Shown one piece after another: positions 1,462 through 56,892 of a stretch of DNA of 64,000 nucleotides. The translations under genes were made by a program, and so were the position numbers. The notes under the pieces were generated by a model. The model had not been told where the DNA came from and searched no databases. It saw only the letters and a program-made list of their open reading frames with translations. Source of the DNA: Candidatus Altimarinota bacterium (GTDB taxonomy: Bacteria > Patescibacteriota > Gracilibacteria > BD1-5 > UBA2023); assembly GCA_028713325.1 (NCBI GenBank), contig JAQTON010000002.1, positions 1-64,000 of the forward strand, given 5' to 3'. Positions within the stretch are counted from its first letter, which is position 1; every line of letters starts with the position of its first letter.

Positions 1462-2439
1462 CTAGACAACAACGATATTCTCAAATATATCTCTGATAAT
1501 CTCGTCCACTCCTATATTCTGTCCGATGGCCTCAAAGGTTCGACCGATACGATGCCTGAGTACGTCATAAGCGATGGATTTGATGTCATCGGGAGTTACG
1601 TAAGAACGTCATTCAAGAACCGCCATAACTTTGGCGGTTCTTATGAGAGCGATAGAGGCACGCGGAGAGGCTCAAAAATCGATGAGATCCTCCCCTTTGA
1701 TGTATCCGAATTGTTCAGGGTTTCGTGTTGCGAGAACGATATTTGCGACATATTCGTAGATTTTTTCATCCACATGCACCTGTTCGGTGATAATCTTCTG
1801 AATGGTGATAATCTCATCACGTGAAAGTATCTGATGAATTTCCGAAAGTTCTCCGGAATTCGTTCGCTTCATAATCTCTATCTCCTCAGATCGAGTCGGA
1901 TAATTCACCTCCGTTTTCAACAAGAATCGATCGAGTTGCGCTTCGGGAAGCGGATATGTTCCTTCCTGTTCGATAGGATTCTGCGTTGCGAGAACGATAA
2001 AAGGAGAGGGGAGCGAAAATGTCTCTCCGCCGATGGTCACCTGTCGTTCTTGCATCGCTTCGAGAAGAGCGGATTGCACTTTAGCCGGTGCACGATTAAT
2101 CTCATCCGCGAGGAGGAAATTCGTGAAAATCGGCCCTTTATTCGTATAGAATTTCGATTCCGCCTGATTGTACATCTGACCACCGGTCAAATCTCCGGGC
2201 AAGAGATCGGGAGTGAATTGAATACGGGCGAAATCGAGTCAGAGAGTACGAGAGATGGTTTCTACGGTGAGTGTTTTGGCAAGACCAGGAACTCACTCCA
2301 GGAGAATATGCCCTCCTGAAAAAAGAGCGATAAGGATATTTCGGACGAGAATATCTTGACCAACCACCCGTTTTCACACTTCTCTGCGAATGTCAGAGAT
2401 CCGAGAAGTAATATCTTCGATGGAAATTTGTTGTGTCAT
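1462..2439 (-). CDS. moxR: MoxR-family AAA+ ATPase
   Basis: 325 aa with five in-frame TGA codons read as Gly. MoxR ATPases act as chaperones with VWA and DUF58 proteins to mature or insert partners. Visible are the P-loop LLE(G)VPGLAKT (about 46-56), the segment '[18 protein letters not shown]', Walker B '[10 protein letters not shown]' (about 108-118), sensor 'VLATQNP', and the C-terminal lid 'F(G)[16 protein letters not shown]' with 'LE(G)RSYVTPDDI'; bracketed G residues are TGA. Each falls on a family-invariant glycine. The start is the ATG of MTQQISIED. Partner genes lie far away: batA at 49430 and DUF58 at 51495. Confidence 0.95.
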
Positions 2440-2592
2440 AGAACTTTGTATATAAAAATAGGATATGAAGAGTATAGAGAAAATTTCCTTTTTTTCAAAT
2501 CGAGAAAACGGTATACGAAAAATCCCTACAAAGAGTTTAATTAACAGAGGGATTCTTCCTTTCGGCTGAATGCCGATTCGGACGCGGAAGTC

Positions 2593-2656
2593 GGACGACA
2601 AATCGTTGTCGTCCTAAAATCCGTTGGATTTTCCCTCCGTTCGAATCCCCCATCTC
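2593..2656 (+). other. tandem hairpins with a tRNA-3'-like end
   Basis: Two perfect 7-bp hairpins sit side by side: GGACGAC/GTCGTCC (2593-2614) and AAAATCC/GGATTTT (2616-2632). They are followed by GTTCGAATCCCCCATCTC, which resembles the T-loop and acceptor 3' strand of a tRNA such as the Ser tRNA next door. No complete cloverleaf forms and CCA is absent. It could be a degraded long-arm tRNA; the function is unknown. Confidence 0.3.
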
Positions 2657-2674
2657 AATCTTCTTATGAAAAAT

Positions 2675-2697
2675 AAAATACCCACAAGGGGTATTTT
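2675..2697 (-). terminator. terminator downstream of tRNA-Ser
   Basis: The inverted repeat AAAATACCC-acaa-GGGGTATTTT lies just 3' of the Ser tRNA on the minus strand and is flanked by T-rich sequence. Confidence 0.65.
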
Positions 2698-2707
2698 TAG
2701 TTTTTCA

Positions 2708-2799
2708 TGGCGGAGAGAGGGGGATTCGAACCCCCGATGATGGAAAACCACCATACTGGATTTCGAGTCCAGCGCGTTCAACCACTCTGCCATCTCTCC
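2708..2799 (-). tRNA. tRNA-Ser (CGA anticodon)
   Basis: Class II tRNA of 92 nt including an encoded CCA. On the minus strand acceptor GGAGAGA pairs with TCTCTCC, the anticodon arm CTGGACTCGAAATCCAG carries CGA, a long variable arm (TGGTGG-ttt-CCATCA type) is present, and the T arm is GGGGGTTCGAATCCCCC. Confidence 0.95.
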
Positions 2800-2852
2800 G
2801 GAGAACGGGGAGGAGTATACGAGGAAAATATATTTTGCAAATAAAAAAACAG

Positions 2853-4103
2853 CTAAGAAAGATGTGTTTCTGTGTTTCCCTCGGAAGGAGAGATATTCTT
2901 CGAAGTTTCATCGGAAAGAGGTGCTTTCGCTGTGTTTGAGAGAAAACCTTCAAGAATTTTATCGATTTCTCTGGATATATCCTCTTGCGTATCTTTCTTT
3001 ATAGTCACCGTAAACTTTCCCGTTTTTTTACTGAGAGAATCGGAAAGCATCACCGTAACGTTTCCGGTATACAGTTTTTTGATTTCCATGGAAACAAAGC
3101 TATTTTTGGAAAGTCCTATATTTTTCGATAGGGCAACAGATTGAATTTGCTCAACCAATAACAATTGATCAATGGAAAACTGTATCCATGAACTCATTCC
3201 TTCTTTTGTAAGACGATTTTGATTTTTAATGCTGTCCGCATAAAATCCAAGAGACCCCATCCCTTTGTATTCCATCCAAACAAGAATTCATCCTCCTGAT
3301 TGTTCTTGAATTTTCATCTCGATATTTTTATCGGGAAAACCCGCCATTATCTCGCTTCTCAATTTCGAAAGAGTTGCATAGATTTTGGAATTATCCGCAC
3401 CAACAAAATTTTTGGATTGTTTCTCCTCTTCTCTACTTCCTACAAATTGCTTCTTTCTTCGAAGATTGCAATTTTCCGATTTTTTTTGTTCTTCCAGCAA
3501 TTCAGCGGAGAGGTTGTTTATTCTACTCTCATCCAACCCTATTATAACCCTATAGGTGCCCATAATTTCTTCTCATTTTACAACAGCTTCTTGAAGGGTT
3601 CCGTTTATTACGGAACACTTATTTAGTTCTTTCGCTTGTGTTTTTACAATCAAAATATTCTCTTTCCCTTTCTGGATGATATCATATCCCGTTTCCTCGT
3701 CGGAAAATACTTTCGCGAGAGAAGAGGTGTATTCTTGTACCGAAGATTCTGGCGAAACTTGTCAGTAAAAAGCGGTTCCAGTTCATCAAACGACCCCGCC
3801 CGTAACGCAACTTACGGCGAGAACAAGTCATGAGGCACGAGAATCGCGTTTGATAATATGCCGTTGCCCGCTAATGATGCGTTGTTGCTCTTCGATAGTA
3901 CTCTGTTGTTCTGATATAAGACCCCGTAATACTTCTGTTTCATGCCCGCTTTTTCCAGCAAAATCCAGAACATCGGATATTTTTCCGCCAATTCTCCCAC
4001 GAGTGAAATCGGATTGTGAATCAACGGTAGCGGATCCCTTTTTTCTTTTCCGGAGAATCTTCCCTACCAACTCTCATGCCTTATCGAACAACTGATTTTT
4101 CAT
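2853..4103 (-). CDS. anchored coiled-coil protein of unknown function
   Basis: 416 aa, continuous only if seven TGA codons are Gly. The N-terminal 90 residues are charged and helical (EEQQRIISGQRHIIKR just before the membrane). One hydrophobic Gly/Val/Ala-rich segment (about 93-118, beginning SGLVLAVSCVTGGVVGG) follows. The rest is a soluble domain rich in Lys, Glu and Ser, with coiled-coil character around 190-260 and a C-terminal part containing 'GKFTVTIKKDTQEDISREI'. I recognise no family. Alternate reads in other frames stop often. The ATG start (MKNQLFDKAG) faces the M23 gene across an intergenic inverted repeat, suggesting divergent control. Confidence 0.75.
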
Positions 4104-4113
4104 AATTTGATTA

Positions 4114-4155
4114 TTTTAGTATAAATACATGAATCACCCTCTATTTATACTAAAA
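4114..4155. promoter_or_regulatory. 13-bp perfect inverted repeat between divergent genes
   Basis: TTTTAGTATAAAT (4114-4126) and its exact reverse complement ATTTATACTAAAA (4143-4155) are separated by 16 nt. The site is 11 nt upstream of the start of the 2853-4103 gene and about 175 nt upstream of the M23 gene at 4330. Spacing of about 29 nt between arm centres fits a dimeric operator; a structured leader RNA is the alternative. Confidence 0.45.
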
Positions 4156-4329
4156 AAATAATTTTGTCAATAAAAAATATTATTTCTTTTGTCGCTGTTG
4201 CAATGGTGAGATTTGTATTTGCCTTACTGGCAGGATATAGAGAAACTTTCTCCCCCTTCTTCAAATTTTGCTTTTCAGGAAAAGATATGTTATTATAAAG
4301 GAAATTATTACATGTAAATATACATACCT

Positions 4330-5952
4330 ATGCGAAAAAACCATTTTTCTCCTCTCTCGGTTATTTGGATTTGCAATTTGATTCTCCTTATTACCTATGT
4401 TATAGGCGGACCGAGTCTTTCCTTTCTCAAATCCTCCATACTGGAATACAACAATATTGTTTCAGATCCTTTTGACGGGGCAATTTCTCCTATCGCTTAC
4501 GTGCCGGATTGGTCAAAAACGGAAAGTATGAATAAATCCCGTCTGTTTGAGAGTTTTGATATCTCCGATTTTATGGATATTCCGGAGTATGACACCGAGC
4601 TTCTTGCTGATACTGTACAAAAAAATACAGCTTCTTTTCTGTTGCATTATACCTATCCCGTAGTTTATATGGGGAGTTATAGAGGAAATTATGCCGAATA
4701 TGATGGAAGTCACGGTGCGATCGATATTCGTGCACCCATCGGAACGCCGGTACTATCCGTTGCTAACGGCGTGGTAGTGAAAGTGAAAAATATAGAATCC
4801 TGAGATGGGAAATATGTTATCATCCGACATGACGGCGTGGATGTGGATGGGGTAAGAGAAACACTCTATTCCGGGTACCAACACCTCTCGGAAATCATCG
4901 TTATAGAAGGAATAAAAATTAAACGTGGAGAAGTTCTTGGAAAAGTGGGAATGACGGGTATAACCACCACGCCACATCTTCATTTTCAGATTGACAAGAG
5001 CACCTCACCATTTCATATGTACTGGCCGTATAGTTTCCGTGAAGCGGCCGATCTCGGACTCGATTTTTTTGGAGCCATCAACGTATGACTTGGAAAAGAA
5101 AATACCATCCGTTATACAGTACATCCGATGAATTTCATAAAAAATCACCCATTCCTGAGTTCCGCACCAAAAGAAATGAACATAGCTTCTGAAACAAAAC
5201 AAGATTCTCTCGTTGTATCCTCCGAAATAATCGCCGATATCACTGTTCCAGATACTACTACGATAGAAACGGTGGCACCAAAAATAGAAACTATCAATCC
5301 TCCCGAGACCATCGCACAAACAGAGATAATTATCCCCGCACAAGCAACGCCGGTTACTGTAGAAAAGGCAGTAGAGTCGCCGAAAATCATTCCGACATTC
5401 GTTCCGGATGCTACGCATATTTTCAGTGATATTCCCGTAGATTCTCCCTTTTATGCCGCAACCAAGTATCTGAAGAAGGCGGGGGTAACTCATGGATATA
5501 CCGACGGAGGATTCCATCCGAACGATCGAGTTTCCCGAAGCGAGACTATTCTCCTCTATGACAGACTCTTTAATGTCGGAGAAGTTAATACGGGGGTTGA
5601 TATTCCTTTTCTCGATGTGCTCCCGTCAGATGAACTCACACAGGCACTCACCAGAGCCTTTGTACGGAAAATCGTTGTAAAAGGCAAGTATTTTCGTCCC
5701 AACGATTCGCTCACCAGAGCAGAAGCTATAACTCTTCTCATTCGAACCTCCGAAATCCCTCTAGACACATGAAAATATTCTCTTTTCAAAGATATAAAAG
5801 CGAGTAATTCTCATATGGCGTACATCAATACTTTTGCGAAGTATCTCGGAATACAAGGTACGAATTTTGAACCAAACAAAGACATTACCCGCGGAGAGCT
5901 CGCGAAGATACTCTATGTATTCGACCAAAAGAAGCAAAAAGAGAGCAAATAG
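4330..5952 (+). CDS. M23 peptidase with C-terminal SLH repeats
   Basis: 540 aa with three TGA-Gly codons. A membrane segment at residues 9-28 suggests export. The LytM/M23 peptidase core carries the zinc ligands HG-AID ('GSHGAIDIRAPIGTPV', about 126-141) and 'PHLHFQID' (about 215-222). A Pro/Thr/Val-rich linker (about 285-350) leads to S-layer homology repeats from about 360, including 'FSDIPVDSPFYAATKYL', 'GFHPNDRVSRSETILLY' and 'FRPNDSLTRAEAITLLI', with a final 'FEPNKDITRGELAKILY'. The domain order suggests a wall-bound murein hydrolase. The stop codon lies inside the terminator hairpin. Confidence 0.92.
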
Positions 5953-5962
5953 CTCTCTTTTT
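5936..5962 (+). terminator. terminator overlapping the M23 gene stop codon
   Basis: AAAAAGAGAGC-aaata-GCTCTCTTTTT forms an 11-bp stem with T tracts on both strands. The gene's TAG is in the loop and stem. It can also serve the convergent galU transcript. Confidence 0.8.
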
Positions 5963-5966
5963 TTCG

Positions 5967-6004
5967 CCTCACCCCCGACCCCTCTCCTTTTGAAGGAGAA
6001 GGGG
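5967..6004. repeat. CCTCACCCCC...GAAGGAGAAGGGG repeat fragment
   Basis: A C-rich stretch ends in the hairpin TCTCCTTTTGAAGGAGA and then GGGG. This resembles a class of C-rich/G-rich intergenic repeats seen widely in bacterial genomes, and it is related to the segment lodged inside batA at 49995-50045. Confidence 0.45.
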
Positions 6005-6053
6005 AAATAAAGAATGAGAATTAAATTAATTTGGTATAAAACTAGATTCTCTG

Positions 6054-6173
6054 AAAATATGAAAGAACGATAGAATTCACGTGAAAAACGAGTACCGAAA
6101 TGAGACGTACTCATGTACGACGAATGAAGGAAACGGAATTTTGAACGCGAAGTCTGAAGTTACTTCATATTTT
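6054..6173 (-). repeat. 3'-end structured repeat, copy A (after galU)
   Basis: First of four related elements. Outer arms AAAATATGAA (6054-6063) and TTCATATTTT (6164-6173) are exact complements and the second overlaps the galU stop. Read with galU, the interior has TTCAAAATTCCG and a central hairpin CGTAC-atga-GTACG, shared with copies at 20346, 26203 and 44980. Confidence 0.7.
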
Positions 6174-7041
6174 ATACCCGTGTTTTCATAAACTCGCGTA
6201 GCTTCGGCCCCAAATCCTCGCGATCAAGAGCGTAATCGATGGTGGCTTTCAGAAATCCGAATTTATCCCCAGTATCGTACCGAGCACCTTCGAGTTCCAG
6301 TCCATAGATATCGCGATCCGACACCATAGCGGCAAAGGCATCGGCAAGTCGGAGCTCTCCGTCCCTGCTCGCTTCTCCTCCGGAGCGTTCGATATAATCG
6401 AAAACTTCGGGAGTGATGATATATTTTCCGATAACCCCGAGTCGTGAGCTTGTTTCCGTCGCTTTTGGTTTTTCGAGGAATTTATCCACCAGGTGGATAC
6501 CGTGTTCCGAGGAACTCGATTCGATGATACCATAGGACGATACCCTCTCGTCCGATACTTTCTCCAGAGCGATAATAGGAGTCTGTTTGCGGGAAAAAGC
6601 TTCGATGAGCTGGGATGCTCCTCCTTTTTCTCCCTTGATAAGATCGTCTCCAAAGAGGACCAGACAAGGCTCGTCTCCGATAAAGGGCCGAGCACGGAGA
6701 ATCGCATCCCCATCTCCTCGCGGTATCGGTTGTCGCACGTAGGCGATGCGAGCGAGATTCGGGATACCTTCCACCGATGCGAGGAGATCGTGTTTTTTCT
6801 TTTCGACCAATGTATATTCGAGCTCAAATGAAGTATCGAAATGATCTTCGATGGAGTGCTTTCCTCGTCCGGTAACGATAACGATATCGGTAATACCCGC
6901 CGCAACCGCCTCTTCCACGAGGTATTGGAGAACCGGTTTGTCCACAATCGGAAGCATCTCTTTCGGCATAGCTTTCGTGGCAGGAAGGAACCGGGTTCCG
7001 TACCCCGCCGCCGCGATGATGCACTTGCGAATCTTTTGCAT
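6172..7041 (-). CDS. galU: UTP-glucose-1-phosphate uridylyltransferase
   Basis: 289 aa from the ATG of MQKIRKCIIAAAG; a longer upstream reading exists but lacks family sequence. The enzyme makes UDP-glucose from UTP and glucose-1-phosphate for envelope polysaccharide. The nucleotide-binding motif GYGTRFLPATKAMPKEML, then VDKPVLQYLVEEA, 'VLFGDDL' and 'FLEKP', are all present in family order. No TGA codon is needed and the stop is TAA. It stands alone, followed by element copy A. Confidence 0.95.
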   Translation of the reverse strand: MQKIRKCIIAAAGYGTRFLPATKAMPKEMLPIVDKPVLQYLVEEAVAAGITDIVIVTGRGKHSIEDHFDTSFELEYTLVEKKKHDLLASVEGIPNLARIAYVRQPIPRGDGDAILRARPFIGDEPCLVLFGDDLIKGEKGGASQLIEAFSRKQTPIIALEKVSDERVSSYGIIESSSSEHGIHLVDKFLEKPKATETSSRLGVIGKYIITPEVFDYIERSGGEASRDGELRLADAFAAMVSDRDIYGLELEGARYDTGDKFGFLKATIDYALDREDLGPKLREFMKTRV

Positions 7042-42959: not shown

Positions 42960-44018
42960 CTATTTTTGCTCCAGTTTATCGAGCCGTGTTTTGAAAGAAT
43001 CAATCTCCTTCTGTTGATCGATATACTTCGTAAAAAGTTCATCGAGTTTATGAGAGAGTTCTTTGACTGCTTCTATGAGGGGAGCAACCAATGCTGAATA
43101 ATTTACTGCTTTCATTCCTTGTTTATCTGTATTTACTAGTTCAGGAAAGACTTGTTCCACTTCTTGTGCGATAACTCCGACTTGAGAACCACTTCCTTTT
43201 GATGAATCTTTCCATTCATAGGTTACACCACGAAGTTCTTCTATTTTATCCAAAGCTCCTGAGAGTATTTGAATATTTTTCTTGAGATTACGATCAGAAG
43301 CAGTCCAGGAAGTTCCACGTACACTTCCATTAACATCGAGTTTATAACCTACATCAGTAGTAGTGCCAATCATAACATTACCATTACTAGCTATTACCAT
43401 TTTCGTATTTCCTGCAGATATTCCACCAATACCTAAGTTTAATTGATTAGAGCCCCCGGCCCATATCCATGATTGAGTGGCTCCATTAAAAGAATCAGTA
43501 AGTTGGACAGAGTTATAAAATTTTGAGTCTCCGGCAGACAAGGAGCCTCTTATATCTAGTAAAGCCCCAGGACTTGTTGTCCCAATACCAATGTTTCCAA
43601 CGTTATCAATAACAAACGGTGTTGACCATGAGGCCCCATTATAGGAATCTATAGCAAAACCATTAGCGGGCACGGCAGATGTTACACGAAAACCGTACTT
43701 CTGTGTTCCGTTCAGAGTCAATGCACCGGATCCTGCTATATCCGTCCTAGTTAATGCGATTTCGAGCTGACTTCTTGGATTCACTGTCCCAATCCCCATA
43801 TTTCCTCCCGAGAATGAAAGATTCGAAAGATTTGTATCCAATGTCTGAAGTCCTGTAACCATCTTATTCCATTCTGTTGCAGTCAATCCCGAGCCACTTC
43901 ATACATTTGCCGGATAACTTGAGATATAGTTTGAATATCCGATGGTCAGTACTATAACCGTCCCAAAGAACACCAGCCCAGAATAGAATGATTTCTTCCA
44001 GAAAGAAAGAGTTTTCAT
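42960..44018 (-). CDS. surface protein with C-terminal S74 chaperone domain
   Basis: 352 aa with one TGA-Gly. One N-terminal membrane segment (about 14-31), then 'SGLTATEWNKMVTGLQTLD'. The middle is a beta-rich repeat region with 'GNIGIGTTSPGALLDIRGSL' and related 'MGIGTVNPRSQLEI' and 'VMIGTTTDVGYKLDVNGSV' units, as in trimeric tail fibres. The end is the intramolecular chaperone (Peptidase_S74): 'SDRNLKKNIQILSGALDKI' with the Ser-Lys dyad, 'YEWKD', 'QVGVIAQEVEQVFPELV', then a coiled coil. A self-cleaving trimeric fibre is expected. It is cellular, since no other phage genes are near. Confidence 0.88.
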
Positions 44019-50545: not shown

Positions 50546-51370
50546 TTACCATTCAATTCTAACACTTCATGGATTTCATAGAGCACTATTGTCACCGTCG
50601 AACGTATGTCCTAATCCATTTCCGTTAGCTGGGATAATGGAAGATGGTGGTGTAAAATATGTTGAAACCCCCGTAATTCATCAGTTAGCTCCGGTAGTCC
50701 ACCATCCATTACCAGGACTACCACCTCATACGGTAACTCAAAAAGCAGAGGAGTTATTTCCAGATAATCCAACATAAATACATGTTGCACAATCTACTTT
50801 TGGAGCAGCAACAATAGCATATGTTTGTCCTGGTATTACTGATGTAATAAATAATGCTCGTCAACCATTTCCTGGTGTTCCAACGAAATGCCAATAAAGT
50901 GATTCTACTGCCCCACCTCCAATCATTGAAACAACAACACTCGTTACTCATGGTGGTGCAGTCCAAGAACTTGTGCCATCGATTAATTGCCATGATCCAG
51001 CATTTACGGCACGATACGCATCTGCTACAACACCACCTTGCGGGACTATTCCTCATCCACCTATTCATATTGGAGCACTGGAAGTACAGTCTATCTTTGA
51101 CCCGCTCGCAGTACACCACTTTCCCTCTGTCAAAGCCCCTATCTGTTCAGTAGTAAGAGACTTATGAACCGTTCCATCCGTTGTTGTTCCAGTATTCACG
51201 AGCATCTTATTGAAATACGCCATAAACTTCCCCCCTGTGATTTCTCCCGTTGGAGGAGTACTTGGATAATTTATGGCATAAACAATTCAGAGAACTGTGA
51301 CAATAAGAAATATTCCAGTTACTATTCCATTTATTATTCTTTTCCCGATCCATGAAAGAAATTGTTTCAT
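50546..51370 (-). CDS. glycine-rich surface protein (11 UGA codons)
   Basis: 274 aa, visible only with TGA as Gly: eleven TGA codons spread over the whole chain, and only short fragments otherwise. One membrane segment (about 13-32, with TGA inside: IVTVL-G-IVYA), then 'PPTGEITGGKFMAYFNKML', the motif shared with the 15862-17469 gene. The remainder is Gly, Ser and Thr rich with segments such as 'NGSWQLIDGTSSWT', 'PGNG-G-RALFITSVIPGQTYA' and 'APKVDCATCIYVGLSG'. It looks like an exported Gly-rich beta fold. Start is ATG; the stop is TAA after 'SVRIEW'. Function unknown. Confidence 0.85.
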
Positions 51371-52423: not shown

Positions 52424-53677
52424 ATGCTTAAAATCACCTGAGGACAAACTCTTTCCGGAACGGTCGAAATCAGCGGATCGAAGAATGCGAGTCTTCCGAT
52501 TATCGCAGCGAGCCTGCTCCTTGAAAAAGTGACACTTCATAATGTTCCTCGAATTGGGGATATATTTTCACTCCTTGAGATCATCCAGAGTCTCGGGGTA
52601 GTCGTGAATTTTACGGGAAATACTCTCACGATGGATATGTCTCGAATCTCCCTCGAGAATATGAATCGCGAACTTATGAAGAAGATTCGTGCTTCCATCC
52701 TCCTTTTGGCACCGCTTCTCTACCGTTTCGGTTCGGTGGATATCCCGTTTCCCGGTGGGTGCAATATCGGAAAACGTCCGATTAATGAGCACCTCAATGG
52801 GCTCCGTGAAATCGGATACGAATCCAAAGATGGAGATGAAAGCATTCATCTTTCCGGGAAACTTCAATCGGGGGATAAGAATCTCTATGCGGGTTTCGCG
52901 GTTACCGCCACCGAGAATCTCATAACTGCCAATATACTTCGCCCCGGACACACTCGCATACATCTCGCTGCCATCGAACCACATGTGGTGAATCTGGTCG
53001 ATTTTCTCAAAAAACAGGGAGCAAATATTGTTATGAATTATGATCATACGATCGATATAGTTGGAGTGGAGAGGATTCTCACAATTGGGGAATTCTCCAT
53101 CGTTCACGATTACATAGAATCCGGAACTTTCGTGGTACTTGGGGCACTCGCAAGCGAGGGGTATATCGATATTCACCATGCTTGCATATCCTGACTCACG
53201 AGTTTTCTCGCGAAGTGCCAGGAAGTGGGAGTACGATTCGAAGACAGGGGAGAAGATACGCTTCGTGTATACCGGAGCGAACACCTGAAAGCGGTAAAGT
53301 TTCAAACCAATATATTTCCGGGATTTCCGACGGATTTACAATCCGTGTTCTGTATTCTCCTCTCGCAAGCGGAAGGAGTTTCCCGAGTACAGGAAATCAT
53401 GTTTGAGGGACGACTCAACTTCCTCGTGGAACTCGAGAAGATGAAAGGACACCCCGCCCTCATGAATCCGCACGAAGCACTTATCTTCGGACCGACTCAC
53501 CTGCGTGGATCGACGGTTTCGAGCTGGGATCTGCGAGCCGGAGTCGCTATGATTATAGCGGGACTCGTTGCAACGGGGGATACCTATATTACCAATGTCG
53601 AGTATATCGAGCGAGGATACGAGGATATTATCGGGAAGATAGGAAAACTTGGGGTAGTGATAGAGAAGACGGAATAA
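52424..53677 (+). CDS. murA: UDP-N-acetylglucosamine 1-carboxyvinyltransferase
   Basis: 417 aa with two TGA-Gly codons (KIT-G-GQTLSGTVEI and CIS-G-LTSFL). MurA adds enolpyruvate to UDP-GlcNAc, the first step of wall synthesis and the fosfomycin target. 'ISGSKNASLPIIAASLL' and 'PGGCNIGKRPINEHL' carry the catalytic Cys. 'GFPTDLQSVFCILLSQAEG' and 'DLRAGVAMIIAGLVATGDT' fit the C-terminal half. The Cys rather than Asp at the active site implies fosfomycin-sensitive chemistry. Confidence 0.97.
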
Positions 53678-53685
53678 TCGCAAAC

Positions 53686-53721
53686 AAAAAAACTTTCGGA
53701 AATTTCCGAAAGTTTTTTTAT
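53686..53721. terminator. bidirectional terminator after murA
   Basis: AAAAAAACTTTCGGAAATTT plus CCGAAAGTTTTTTT form a near-perfect stem that also ends the convergent 583-aa gene. Confidence 0.88.
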
Positions 53722-53726
53722 CATAG

Positions 53727-55478
53727 CTATACGCTCAGTATCATGGGAGTTTGCACTTCTTCCAAAAATTCACTCACTTTCTCGAAATCATCATATATTG
53801 AGAATCATAAATGTATCGGTGATAAAATTCCCCAGCACCTGACTTTATAAATATCATGTTCATATGTACGAAGCTTGAATCATTTTTTTAAATCATAGAG
53901 TTTTCATTCGTGAAAATAAAAACTCTCCTCCTCTATTGAATCTTCTTCTATTCAATTAAATGTTAATCAAACAATATTTCCGTCCATTTCCAGAACAGGA
54001 CATATCGTACTTCGTATTTCTATCAAATTCCTCGCAGTATTCGTTTCTCTGTCAAATACTTTTACAAATGTCTTTCCATCTTCCCGTACAAGACTTGGAA
54101 TACCGGCGAGAAAATCATTGTTAATAGTCCCATCTAACCGTTGCAGTCAATCTATAGGAGTAATGGATTGTCGGGTTTTGTTGAGTATGTAACAATTTTG
54201 TCCTTTGACGGTTCAGACAGAACATATATTCGTGCTGTCATAAAACTTTACTCGGTTGAAACCACTGTAATCTGCCACCTGAGACCATGGCAGATCCCAC
54301 AGAACCCCTTGTTCTCCCAGGAGTGTTTTCCCTGTCAATTTATCCTCCGGGTATGCACTGTCGTCCCACGATTCGGCATGGATTCCTATAATCATTTCTT
54401 TTTTCACTTCACTGTTCTCTTGTATTTCCTCGTCCTCTCTCTCTGTCACGATAAATCCGTCTGGTCACATATAGATTTTGTCATAGAGTTCGTGCAAGAT
54501 TTCTGAAACCTTCCATTCATCCGTCTCTGTCTCCACTATTTTTACGACTCATTTTTTTCCGGATTCGCTCGTAGTCTGGAAGAAACCGTACTCGTGATCG
54601 AGTTCTTCTACAGAAACGATACCTCCTTTACTGTAAATTTGTTCTAGTTGGTTTGTTTTCGAATCGAATCCATACAGTGTTCAAACTCCTGAATAAAAAG
54701 GATGTCCGTTATTTTCAAACGCTCGCATTATCGCCGATATGCTATTTCCCTTGTCGTCCCTTATTCCTCTCTCTTTTACTCACAAAACGAGCCCGTTTTT
54801 CAAAATTTTCGGTGCTTGCTCAAAACTTTCCCCGTAATATATGATTTTTTTATCTTTTTTTATAAGAAATATTCTATACGCACCTACAGAATCCGTATAG
54901 AAATACAATTCTCCCATTCATTCAATTGAATCTAAGTGTTCTATATTTTCTCATCCAACTAAATCGATATTAACGACAAAAGGATAATTCTCTAATTCTT
55001 GGAGTACATATCATATGAATTTTGTACCTTCATAATCTCAAGATTCGTCTTCCAGAAATCTTCGTATAAATTCTTTGTTTATATTCGCTTGCAATAGAGA
55101 TATATCTGCAAGTAGGGTATTTCCGATCGTTAGAATGTCTTTTCTTGAAAAGAAATCCCACAGATATTTCCTCTCCGTATCAGTAATAGGGAATCATTTA
55201 ACAAATACCGCTCTGTAAAGAGATAAAATCTGGTCAATATTTATTTGCAAAGATAATTCCTTTCCTCTGTTTATCTGCTTTCCAATCACTTTTAAAGCTC
55301 TTTCAGCTGTCTTCGAGCGAACAAGATCCGCCTCAAAATTGCAAAATTCTCGGGTGGAAAGTTCGTTTACTCACTCGGTATCTCACTTGGACACCGGAGC
55401 TTGCGATACTCGCATCATCCTGTTTCGTCATAAAACCACGGTTTTCACCTCTGGAATCCTCCCGATACATCCGCCCAT
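53727..55478 (-). CDS. unrecognised 583-aa protein (19 UGA codons)
   Basis: 583 aa with nineteen TGA codons by hand count; no frame is open for long under the standard code. The chain is continuous from an ATG (MGGCIGRIPEVKTVVL, or a GTG 11 codons later behind GGGAGG) to TAG. Residues about 1-150 are helical and charged ('AERALKVIGKQINRGKELSL'). From about 170 it is beta-rich with repeated aromatic strands ('MGELYFYTDSVGAYRIFLIK', 'GTLYGFDSKTNQLEQIYSKG', 'EQGVLWDLPWSQVADYSGFN'), as in a beta-propeller. No signal peptide, membrane segment or family motif recognised. It follows murD by 44 nt. Confidence 0.8.
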
Positions 55479-55522
55479 ATGTTGTTAAATTACAAGTTAA
55501 TGATATAACTTATAATTTTATA

Positions 55523-56809
55523 TTACGAAAAGTCAAGATTTTCTACCGATTCTCGGAACTTCTCTGCCCGATCCAGATAGTCTTTGAACATCCCGAAGCT
55601 CGCACATCCGGGAGAGAGAAGGACGATATCTCAGGCTTTCGCAGTTTTCGCGGATAAAAGAACCGCTTCATTCATGCTTTCGCTGTAATAGTACGAAACT
55701 CCGTGTCGTTCGCAGATTTTCCCGAGTATTTCCCGAGTTGCCCCGATAAGTGCGGCATGTTTCACTTTTTGTCCTAAAATCGGTCCGAGGTGTTCAAACG
55801 TGTCTCACTTGTCCGATCCTCCCGCGATGAGAATTACTTTTTTATCTGCAAAAGAACCGAGTGCGGCGATGAGACTCTGTGCCGAAGTGGATTTGGAATC
55901 GTCGACAAAAGCCACTCCATTTTTAGTGGTCACGAGTTCCAGACGATGAGAAAGTCCGGATATATTCTTCAGATATTCTCGGGTTCTTTTGGAACAAATT
56001 TTGAGAGTATTGATTACAAGCGTACAGGAGAGGATATTCATCGCATTGTGCATTCCCGAAAATCGCGTTTCGTTCAGAAGATATTTTTTCCGCCCGGAGA
56101 GAATGATATTCTCACCATCCGTCCGATCTTTAAGATTTTTATCTGTTCCAAATATCCGCACATTTGGGATATTGGTCGGAAGTCTGAGTCCAAACTCTTT
56201 GGCTCTCGAAAATACTTGCTCGTTGATAATGGAAACGCCGGTAGTATGCTCGAAAAGTCGCATCTTGGCATCGAAATAATCTTGAATATTCGGGTGCCAA
56301 TTGAGATGATCGGTTTCGAAGTTGGTGAAAATAGAATGGGTGGATTTAAATGACCCTATGTTGTAGGACATAAAACTCGAAACTTCGAGGACGATACATC
56401 CGCCCTTGAGTCACTTTTCTTGAATGGTTTGTACCGTCTCTGCGAAAGGAATTTCAAAATTCCCGGAGAGGAAAACTTTCTCTTCTCCGTATTCCTGTTT
56501 CAGGAGATTGTAGGCAATCCAGGCGGTTGTGGATTTTCCGTCGGTTCCGGTAATGGAAATAATCTTGAATCCTTTTGGAAGATAGGGAGAGATGAAATCC
56601 AATTCTCCTACAATCTTTCCCGTTGTATATATCCTGTGGGACGGATTGATTCCCGGCGATGGGATAATGATGCTGTATTTATCAAAGCTCTCTATATTAT
56701 CCGAATCATCCCGAATATCTGAAGGAATTTTATTGTATTCGCAAAAATTCTTAAGTGCAGTTCCGACTTTTCCTTTTCCGTAGATGAGCACTTTTTTCTC
56801 TTGGGACAT
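55523..56809 (-). CDS. murD: UDP-N-acetylmuramoylalanine-D-glutamate ligase
   Basis: 428 aa with three TGA-Gly codons. MurD adds D-Glu to UDP-MurNAc-L-Ala, consistent with the glutamate racemase next door. 'VLIYGKGKVGTALKNF' N-terminal fold, ATP loop 'ISITGTDGKSTTAWIAYNLL', 'VLEVSSF', 'TNFETDHLNWHPNIQDYF', 'FVDDSKSTSAQSLIAAL' and 'A(G)DIVLLSPGCASFGMFKDY' with G from TGA all match Mur ligases of the MurD type. Start MSQEKK. Confidence 0.96.
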
Positions 56810-56892
56810 TTGTAAAAAATGAAATAACATATAATTACACAGATTATATGGAAATCTCATTTTTTAAGAAATATTTTTAATAATCGAAAATA

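What the first reader, a model, noticed from the sequence alone, without database searches (positions are those of the whole stretch)
53727..55478. A 583-aa gene invisible to standard-code gene callers
A single frame runs 584 codons from ATG to TAG with 19 TGA codons. No fragment above about 80 codons survives in the standard code. I recognise no family; the second half looks like a beta-propeller. It sits directly after murD, inside a wall-synthesis gene run.
Basis: partly seen in the sequence, partly recalled or inferred. Interest (0 to 1): 0.68.

Follow-up and report, generated by a model that had tools for sequence, protein, structure and literature searches.

The report
New two-domain protein family in Gracilibacteria
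[quoted passage not shown] its front domain also occurs in front of other interchangeable binding domains, one of them hypermutated by a retroelement, so it looks like one build of a modular recognition protein.

Summary
The frame is real and lies on the minus strand: 55478 to 53727, 583 codons under code 25, 19 TGA, TAG stop. The organism is a Gracilibacterium with a tRNA(UCA) of glycine type, so a known unusual code explains the TGAs; many other genes in the window carry a few. This gene is the most TGA-rich long ORF in the window: 37% of its glycines against 10% pooled for the others. Ten full-length homologues in nine other genomes align over the whole length. They show purifying selection and have Gly at 33 of 54 residues opposite TGA. 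No Pfam, NCBIfam, PHROG or PDB sequence matches. AlphaFold gives an N-terminal helical domain plus a C-terminal, propeller-like beta domain. The gene is its own transcription unit, and in one congener the murA-murD junction is empty, so the cell-wall link is probably positional. The main new result: the helical domain (invariant C-x8-S) also fronts other C-terminal halves in Gracilibacteria: repeat proteins, a lectin-like protein, and the variable protein of a diversity-generating retroelement. Best reading: one architecture of a lineage-specific modular recognition family. Function is inferred, not shown.

The parts
53727..55478 (-). Target gene, 583 codons in code 25 with TAG stop; probable true start at 55448 (GTG with GGGAGG upstream) or 55418/55415 (ATG ATG)
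54963..55418 (-). N-terminal helical domain (about 150 aa) with the motif C-x8-S, shared with proteins that have other C-terminal halves
53730..54962 (-). C-terminal all-beta, propeller-like domain (about 410 aa)
55503..55535 (-). Promoter-like site TTGACT, 16-nt spacer, TATAAG at the 3' end of murD (approximate coordinates); same arrangement upstream of the homologues in L002 and L003; not reported by the consensus scan because of the last base of the second hexamer
55480..55520 (-). AT-rich hairpin or palindrome overlapping the end of the promoter-like site (-11.2 kcal/mol, z -5.5), operator-like
53679..53722 (.). Bidirectional terminator-like hairpin with A-tract and T-tract between the convergent target gene and murA (-22.4 kcal/mol, z -7.2)
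55523..56860 (-). Upstream neighbour murD-like (Mur_ligase_M, Mur_ligase_C)
52424..53677 (+). Convergent downstream neighbour murA-like (EPSP_synthase)

Best explanation
A real accessory gene of a code-25 Gracilibacterium. It encodes a soluble two-domain protein: an N-terminal helical domain of about 150 aa specific to this lineage, and a C-terminal all-beta, propeller-like domain of about 410 aa. The same N-domain is joined to other C-terminal halves in related genomes: tandem repeat domains, a lectin-like domain, and a domain hypermutated by a diversity-generating retroelement (DGR). The best mechanism is a modular recognition protein in which the N-domain docks to a common partner, surface or export route and the C-terminal half is an interchangeable binder. 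Shown: the gene, the code, the family, the constraint, the shared N-domain and one DGR linkage. Predicted: the fold. Inferred: binding, docking, location, and any role in contact with other cells.
For: Ten full-length homologues in nine other genomes, 44-47% identity in the genus and 18-26% in the sister family. Genus pairs with the window gene: dN 0.43-0.47 with dS 2.3 or more, near saturation; 33 of 54 residues opposite the window's TGAs are Gly, 13 of them GGN. tRNA(UCA) with G1:C72, C2:G71, G3:C70, U73, the glycine criteria of PMC8629427. Models at pLDDT 73 and 86 agree on helical plus all-beta. N-domain sharing: profile A4, built without the other architectures, finds L086 at 8e-9, L053 at 1e-7 and L087 at 6e-5, best of 1400 shuffles 0.023; profile against profile 4.6e-10; reciprocal search with the other architectures finds target-family members G110 at 1.8e-7 and G032 at 1.5e-6. 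DGR in G040: TR and VR copies with 22 of 27 mismatches at template adenines, an RT fragment and a MutS_I-like ORF. No membrane segment: highest 19-residue hydropathy 1.26.
Against: No ligand, location or expression data. The family is patchy: 11 genomes of 353 in the class in the strict search (13 at E 0.1, the two extra not convincing), so it is not a core function. Only one DGR-linked member was proved; L086 has a lectin-like C-terminus but no direct repeat of 40 nt or more in the surrounding 7 kb. A beta-propeller can equally be an enzyme or a scaffold. Without an export signal, a role outside the cell is unsupported. In family f2 comparisons synonymous and nonsynonymous differences are often similar, which for very AT-rich, diverged pairs says little.
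Confidence: 0.42

Rival explanations
1. Cytosolic scaffold or regulatory protein: the propeller binds an internal partner such as a kinase, a pilus-assembly or a division protein, and the N-domain is a generic helical oligomerisation or adaptor module. Nothing is exported or diversified for contact with other cells.
For: No signal peptide-like or membrane segment; soluble, mostly acidic proteins; propellers are common scaffolds (general knowledge); most members have no DGR cassette in view.
Against: The N-domain sits on a DGR-diversified protein in G040, and DGR targets studied so far act mainly in cell-cell, cell-particle and virus-cell contact (PMC8144416), although that paper leaves open whether CPR targets without membrane domains differ.
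Confidence: 0.3
2. A cell-wall gene: the product works with MurD, MurA and the Asp/Glu racemase in peptidoglycan synthesis or recycling.
For: It lies between murD and murA in the window and directly after murD in G006 and G001.
Against: Own promoter-like site and terminator; G002 has adjacent murA and murD without the gene; G004 carries it elsewhere; sister-family members have other neighbours; murD is 73% identical between window and congeners, the target 47%.
Confidence: 0.06
3. Propeller-fold enzyme, such as a hydrolase or lyase, with a helical accessory domain.
For: Many propellers are catalytic domains (general knowledge); Foldseek and VIA list peptidase and dehydrogenase propellers among the rows.
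Against: The positions invariant in the 11 sequences are, in the beta half, mostly Gly, Asn, Pro, Leu, Ile and Tyr, without an obvious set of polar catalytic residues; the best structural matches cover part of the domain at Z 7-9.5, the level expected of a common arrangement.
Confidence: 0.15

Closest known systems
DGR variable proteins of the candidate phyla radiation (PMC8144416, clade 2 targets)
   Same: Modular: an unrecognised N-terminal domain plus a C-terminal binding domain, no membrane segment; the N-domain is homologous to that of one proven DGR variable protein, L053/L070.
   Different: The window protein has no variable repeat or template repeat, no reverse transcriptase on its contig, and its C-terminal half is a long all-beta repeat domain instead of a C-type lectin.
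Beta-propeller proteins (prolyl oligopeptidase, DDB1, sortilin and WD40 propellers in the match lists)
   Same: Predicted succession of antiparallel strands over about 350-400 residues.
   Different: No sequence relationship; low TM-scores (0.1-0.3), partial matches, ring closure uncertain.
WG_beta_rep (PF14903) and similar repeat proteins of the same genomes
   Same: Tandem beta-rich repeats stand behind the same N-domain in L087, L096, L105-L107 and L109.
   Different: The target family does not match PF14903 (one of 11 members at E 0.38) nor an HMM of the 40-residue repeats.

Membership tests
Genetic code 25 (UGA = Gly) protein-coding gene | In-frame UGA aligned with glycine in homologues | tested here: met
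   33 of 54 residues opposite the window's TGAs in three congeners are Gly, 13 of them GGN; the next residue occurs 3 times
Genetic code 25 (UGA = Gly) protein-coding gene | tRNA with UCA anticodon and glycine identity elements in the genome | tested here: met
   tRNA at G000:C1:506736, anticodon TCA, G1:C72, C2:G71, G3:C70, U73 (criteria from PMC8629427)
Genetic code 25 (UGA = Gly) protein-coding gene | No release factor 2 | not tested
DGR variable protein | Variable repeat in the 3' end with a matching template repeat and a nearby reverse transcriptase | tested here: not met
   The genome's three RT hits lie on C3 and C1, none on C5; the genome's own template repeat has no match in the window beyond chance
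DGR variable protein | C-type lectin fold in the C-terminal domain | tested here: inconclusive
   The models show an all-beta domain of about 410 residues and no lectin-like rows at the top; a missing row is no proof
N-domain family defined here (C-x8-S helical domain) | Significant match to a profile built from the other architectures only | tested here: met
   A6 finds target-family members at 1.8e-7 and 1.5e-6 (other members, not the window gene itself at E 0.001); A4 against A6 4.6e-10
Beta-propeller | Closed ring of four-stranded blades | tested here: inconclusive
   Strand pattern fits and Foldseek lists propellers at E about 1e-6, but TM-scores are low and matches partial
WG_beta_rep (PF14903) | Match over the curated cut-off | tested here: not met
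   Best of 11 members E 0.38; none for the window protein
Cell-wall synthesis gene run | Conserved linkage and co-transcription with murD/murA | tested here: not met
   Promoter-like site and terminator of its own; linkage lost in G004, absent gene in G002. Transcription itself was not measured

The most novel reading that the evidence does not exclude
Gracilibacteria own a dedicated delivery or docking domain (C-x8-S helical domain) on which they mount a set of exchangeable binders, some fixed (propeller and repeat types) and some hypermutated by retroelements, for recognising host cells, phages or rivals. The domain would be the missing functional part of otherwise blank CPR diversity-generating proteins.
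Probability: 0.2. Interest if true: 0.8.

Novelty: new variant of a known kind. Interest (0 to 1): 0.5.

Why it matters
A survey of DGRs left open whether CPR targets lack functional domains or carry domains that are not recognised (PMC8144416). The family found here gives one such domain a profile, ties it to DGR-diversified and fixed C-terminal halves alike, and makes the question testable in a lineage thought to depend on host cells. It also shows a gene that would be lost wholesale in standard-code annotation.

Tried and rejected
WG-repeat membership: rejected by Pfam and by an HMM of the 40-residue repeats of L087/L105/L106, which scored no better than shuffles. Wall-synthesis operon: rejected. 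Phage origin: no relatives among phage records, PHROGs or IMG/VR scans; the IMG/VR scans use degenerate DNA patterns and may miss code-25 relatives. Defence system: only a marginal PADLOC hit (E 0.0097, 35 residues) to a control-protein model. L007 and most weak N-domain hits above about 1e-4 (L033, L055, L057-L069) were treated as chance: short, in other frames or inside other genes; not all were examined one by one. Spread outside the class: 362 genomes drawn from the phylum gave nothing convincing. Genome-contig scans returned only the three congeners already found. TGA enrichment from low GC3 alone: other genes in the window with equally low GC3 have 2-25% TGA among Gly.

Full report
Observation. 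The interval 53727-55478 holds one long frame on the minus strand, 583 codons from ATG at 55478 to TAG at 53727, with 19 TGA read as Gly in code 25. In the standard code the frame breaks into pieces of at most 78 aa. A frame of this length is only moderately unlikely by chance once TGA is open: simulated windows reached 502 codons. The case for a gene therefore rests on conservation.

Organism and code. The nearest named relatives are Candidatus Gracilibacteria genomes. The genome has a tRNA with anticodon UCA and the acceptor-stem and discriminator bases used to call tRNA-Gly(UCA) (PMC8629427). UGA as glycine in this group has been shown by proteomics (Hanke et al., as cited in PMC6851277). 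Residues opposite the window gene's TGA codons in three congeners are Gly in 33 of 54 cases, 13 of them written GGN; no other residue exceeds 3.

TGA enrichment. In the window 19 of 52 glycines of this frame are TGA against 124 of 1216 (10%) in the other long ORFs (Fisher p 9e-7); it is also the top or second ORF in the 15-18-kb stretches around the homologues in G006, G001 and G004 (p 3e-5, 4e-6, 2e-4). The list of other ORFs contains some spurious frames, which probably raise the background and make the test conservative. Low GC3 alone does not account for it.

Family. Search of 353 genomes of the class finds homologues in 11 genomes: full-length in 10 of them, including the window's own and with two tandem copies in G117, and an N-domain-only ORF in G032. 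Genus members are 44-47% identical over the whole length, sister-family members 18-26%. Genus pairs with the window gene have dN 0.43-0.47 with dS at or near saturation, so the protein is under purifying selection, though it evolves faster than murD (47% against 73% identity). There is no match in Pfam, NCBIfam, PHROGs or PDB sequences.

Structure. AlphaFold models of the window protein (pLDDT 73) and of the compact homologue L016 (pLDDT 86, pTM 0.70) agree: helices over the first 150-165 residues, then almost only strands. Foldseek lists propellers at E about 1e-6, but TM-scores are low and VIA Z-scores of 7-9.5 are at the level of a common arrangement. Propeller-like is the fair word.

Transcription unit. 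A TTGACT-16-TATAAG site lies at the end of murD and recurs before the homologues in L002 and L003; a hairpin with A and T tracts, -22.4 kcal/mol, separates the gene from convergent murA. In G002 murA and murD end within 20 bases of each other with nothing between. G004 has the gene elsewhere and the sister family has other neighbours. The locus is an optional slot, not a wall-synthesis operon.

The N-domain is shared. A profile of the family's N-domain alone found weaker matches in the same order. One, in G040, is the first part of a 303-aa protein whose last part is the variable repeat of a DGR: a 191-nt repeat pair, 22 of 27 differences at template adenines, an RT fragment and a MutS_I-like ORF nearby. 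Iteration added proteins with lectin-like (L086) or tandem-repeat C-terminal halves (L087, L096, L105-L107, L109) and, more weakly, L092/L093/L095/L111. Controls: the profile without any of these scores L086, L053 and L087 at 8e-9, 1e-7 and 6e-5 (for 1000 sequences), against 0.023 for the best of 1400 shuffles; profile comparison gives 4.6e-10, 5e-5 for the weaker group; the reverse search recovers target-family members G110 and G032. Across 19 sequences two residues never change, C and S nine positions later. The phylum-wide sample gave only the window's own genome and two matches near E 0.001.

Interpretation. The sharing of one front domain by fixed and hypermutated C-terminal halves suggests a modular recognition family. 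What the front domain does is not shown; docking or export are guesses. There is no signal peptide-like or membrane segment, which is also the usual state of CPR DGR targets (PMC8144416).

Noticed in passing
L119 (G000:C3:25000-37500), ORF 2395-4689 +, RT 5525-6724 +: The window's own genome has a DGR: RT, a 184-nt repeat pair at 4508-4691 and 5285-5468 with 15 of 16 mismatches at template adenines, and a target with a prepilin N-methylation motif plus a Fib_succ_major C-terminal domain, so a pilin-like protein is diversified.
   Followed up: partly
L099 7722-9092 -: Another pilin-like protein (N_methyl) with a weak Lcl_C-like C-terminus in G117; no cassette looked for.
   Followed up: no
L121 1-807 +: ORF in the window's genome with a lectin-like C-terminus (WSSSSEEEEGIRCVSLD...), possibly a remote DGR target.
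   Followed up: no
L108 (G077): A 941-aa protein that seems to carry the N-domain internally, between two long stretches of other sequence.
   Followed up: partly
window 50546-51370 -, 42960-44018 -; L156 2721-3629 +: Proteins starting with a short basic stretch and a hydrophobic segment (MKxxxxWxK...); one of this kind occupies the slot after murD in G004.
   Followed up: no
L098 851-965 and 2403-2516: Duplicated segment of a small thioredoxin-like ORF, the second copy apparently degraded, next to the L087 gene.
   Followed up: no
window 55480-55520 -: AT-rich palindrome overlapping the promoter-like site; a similar inverted repeat is seen upstream of the homologue in L002.
   Followed up: partly
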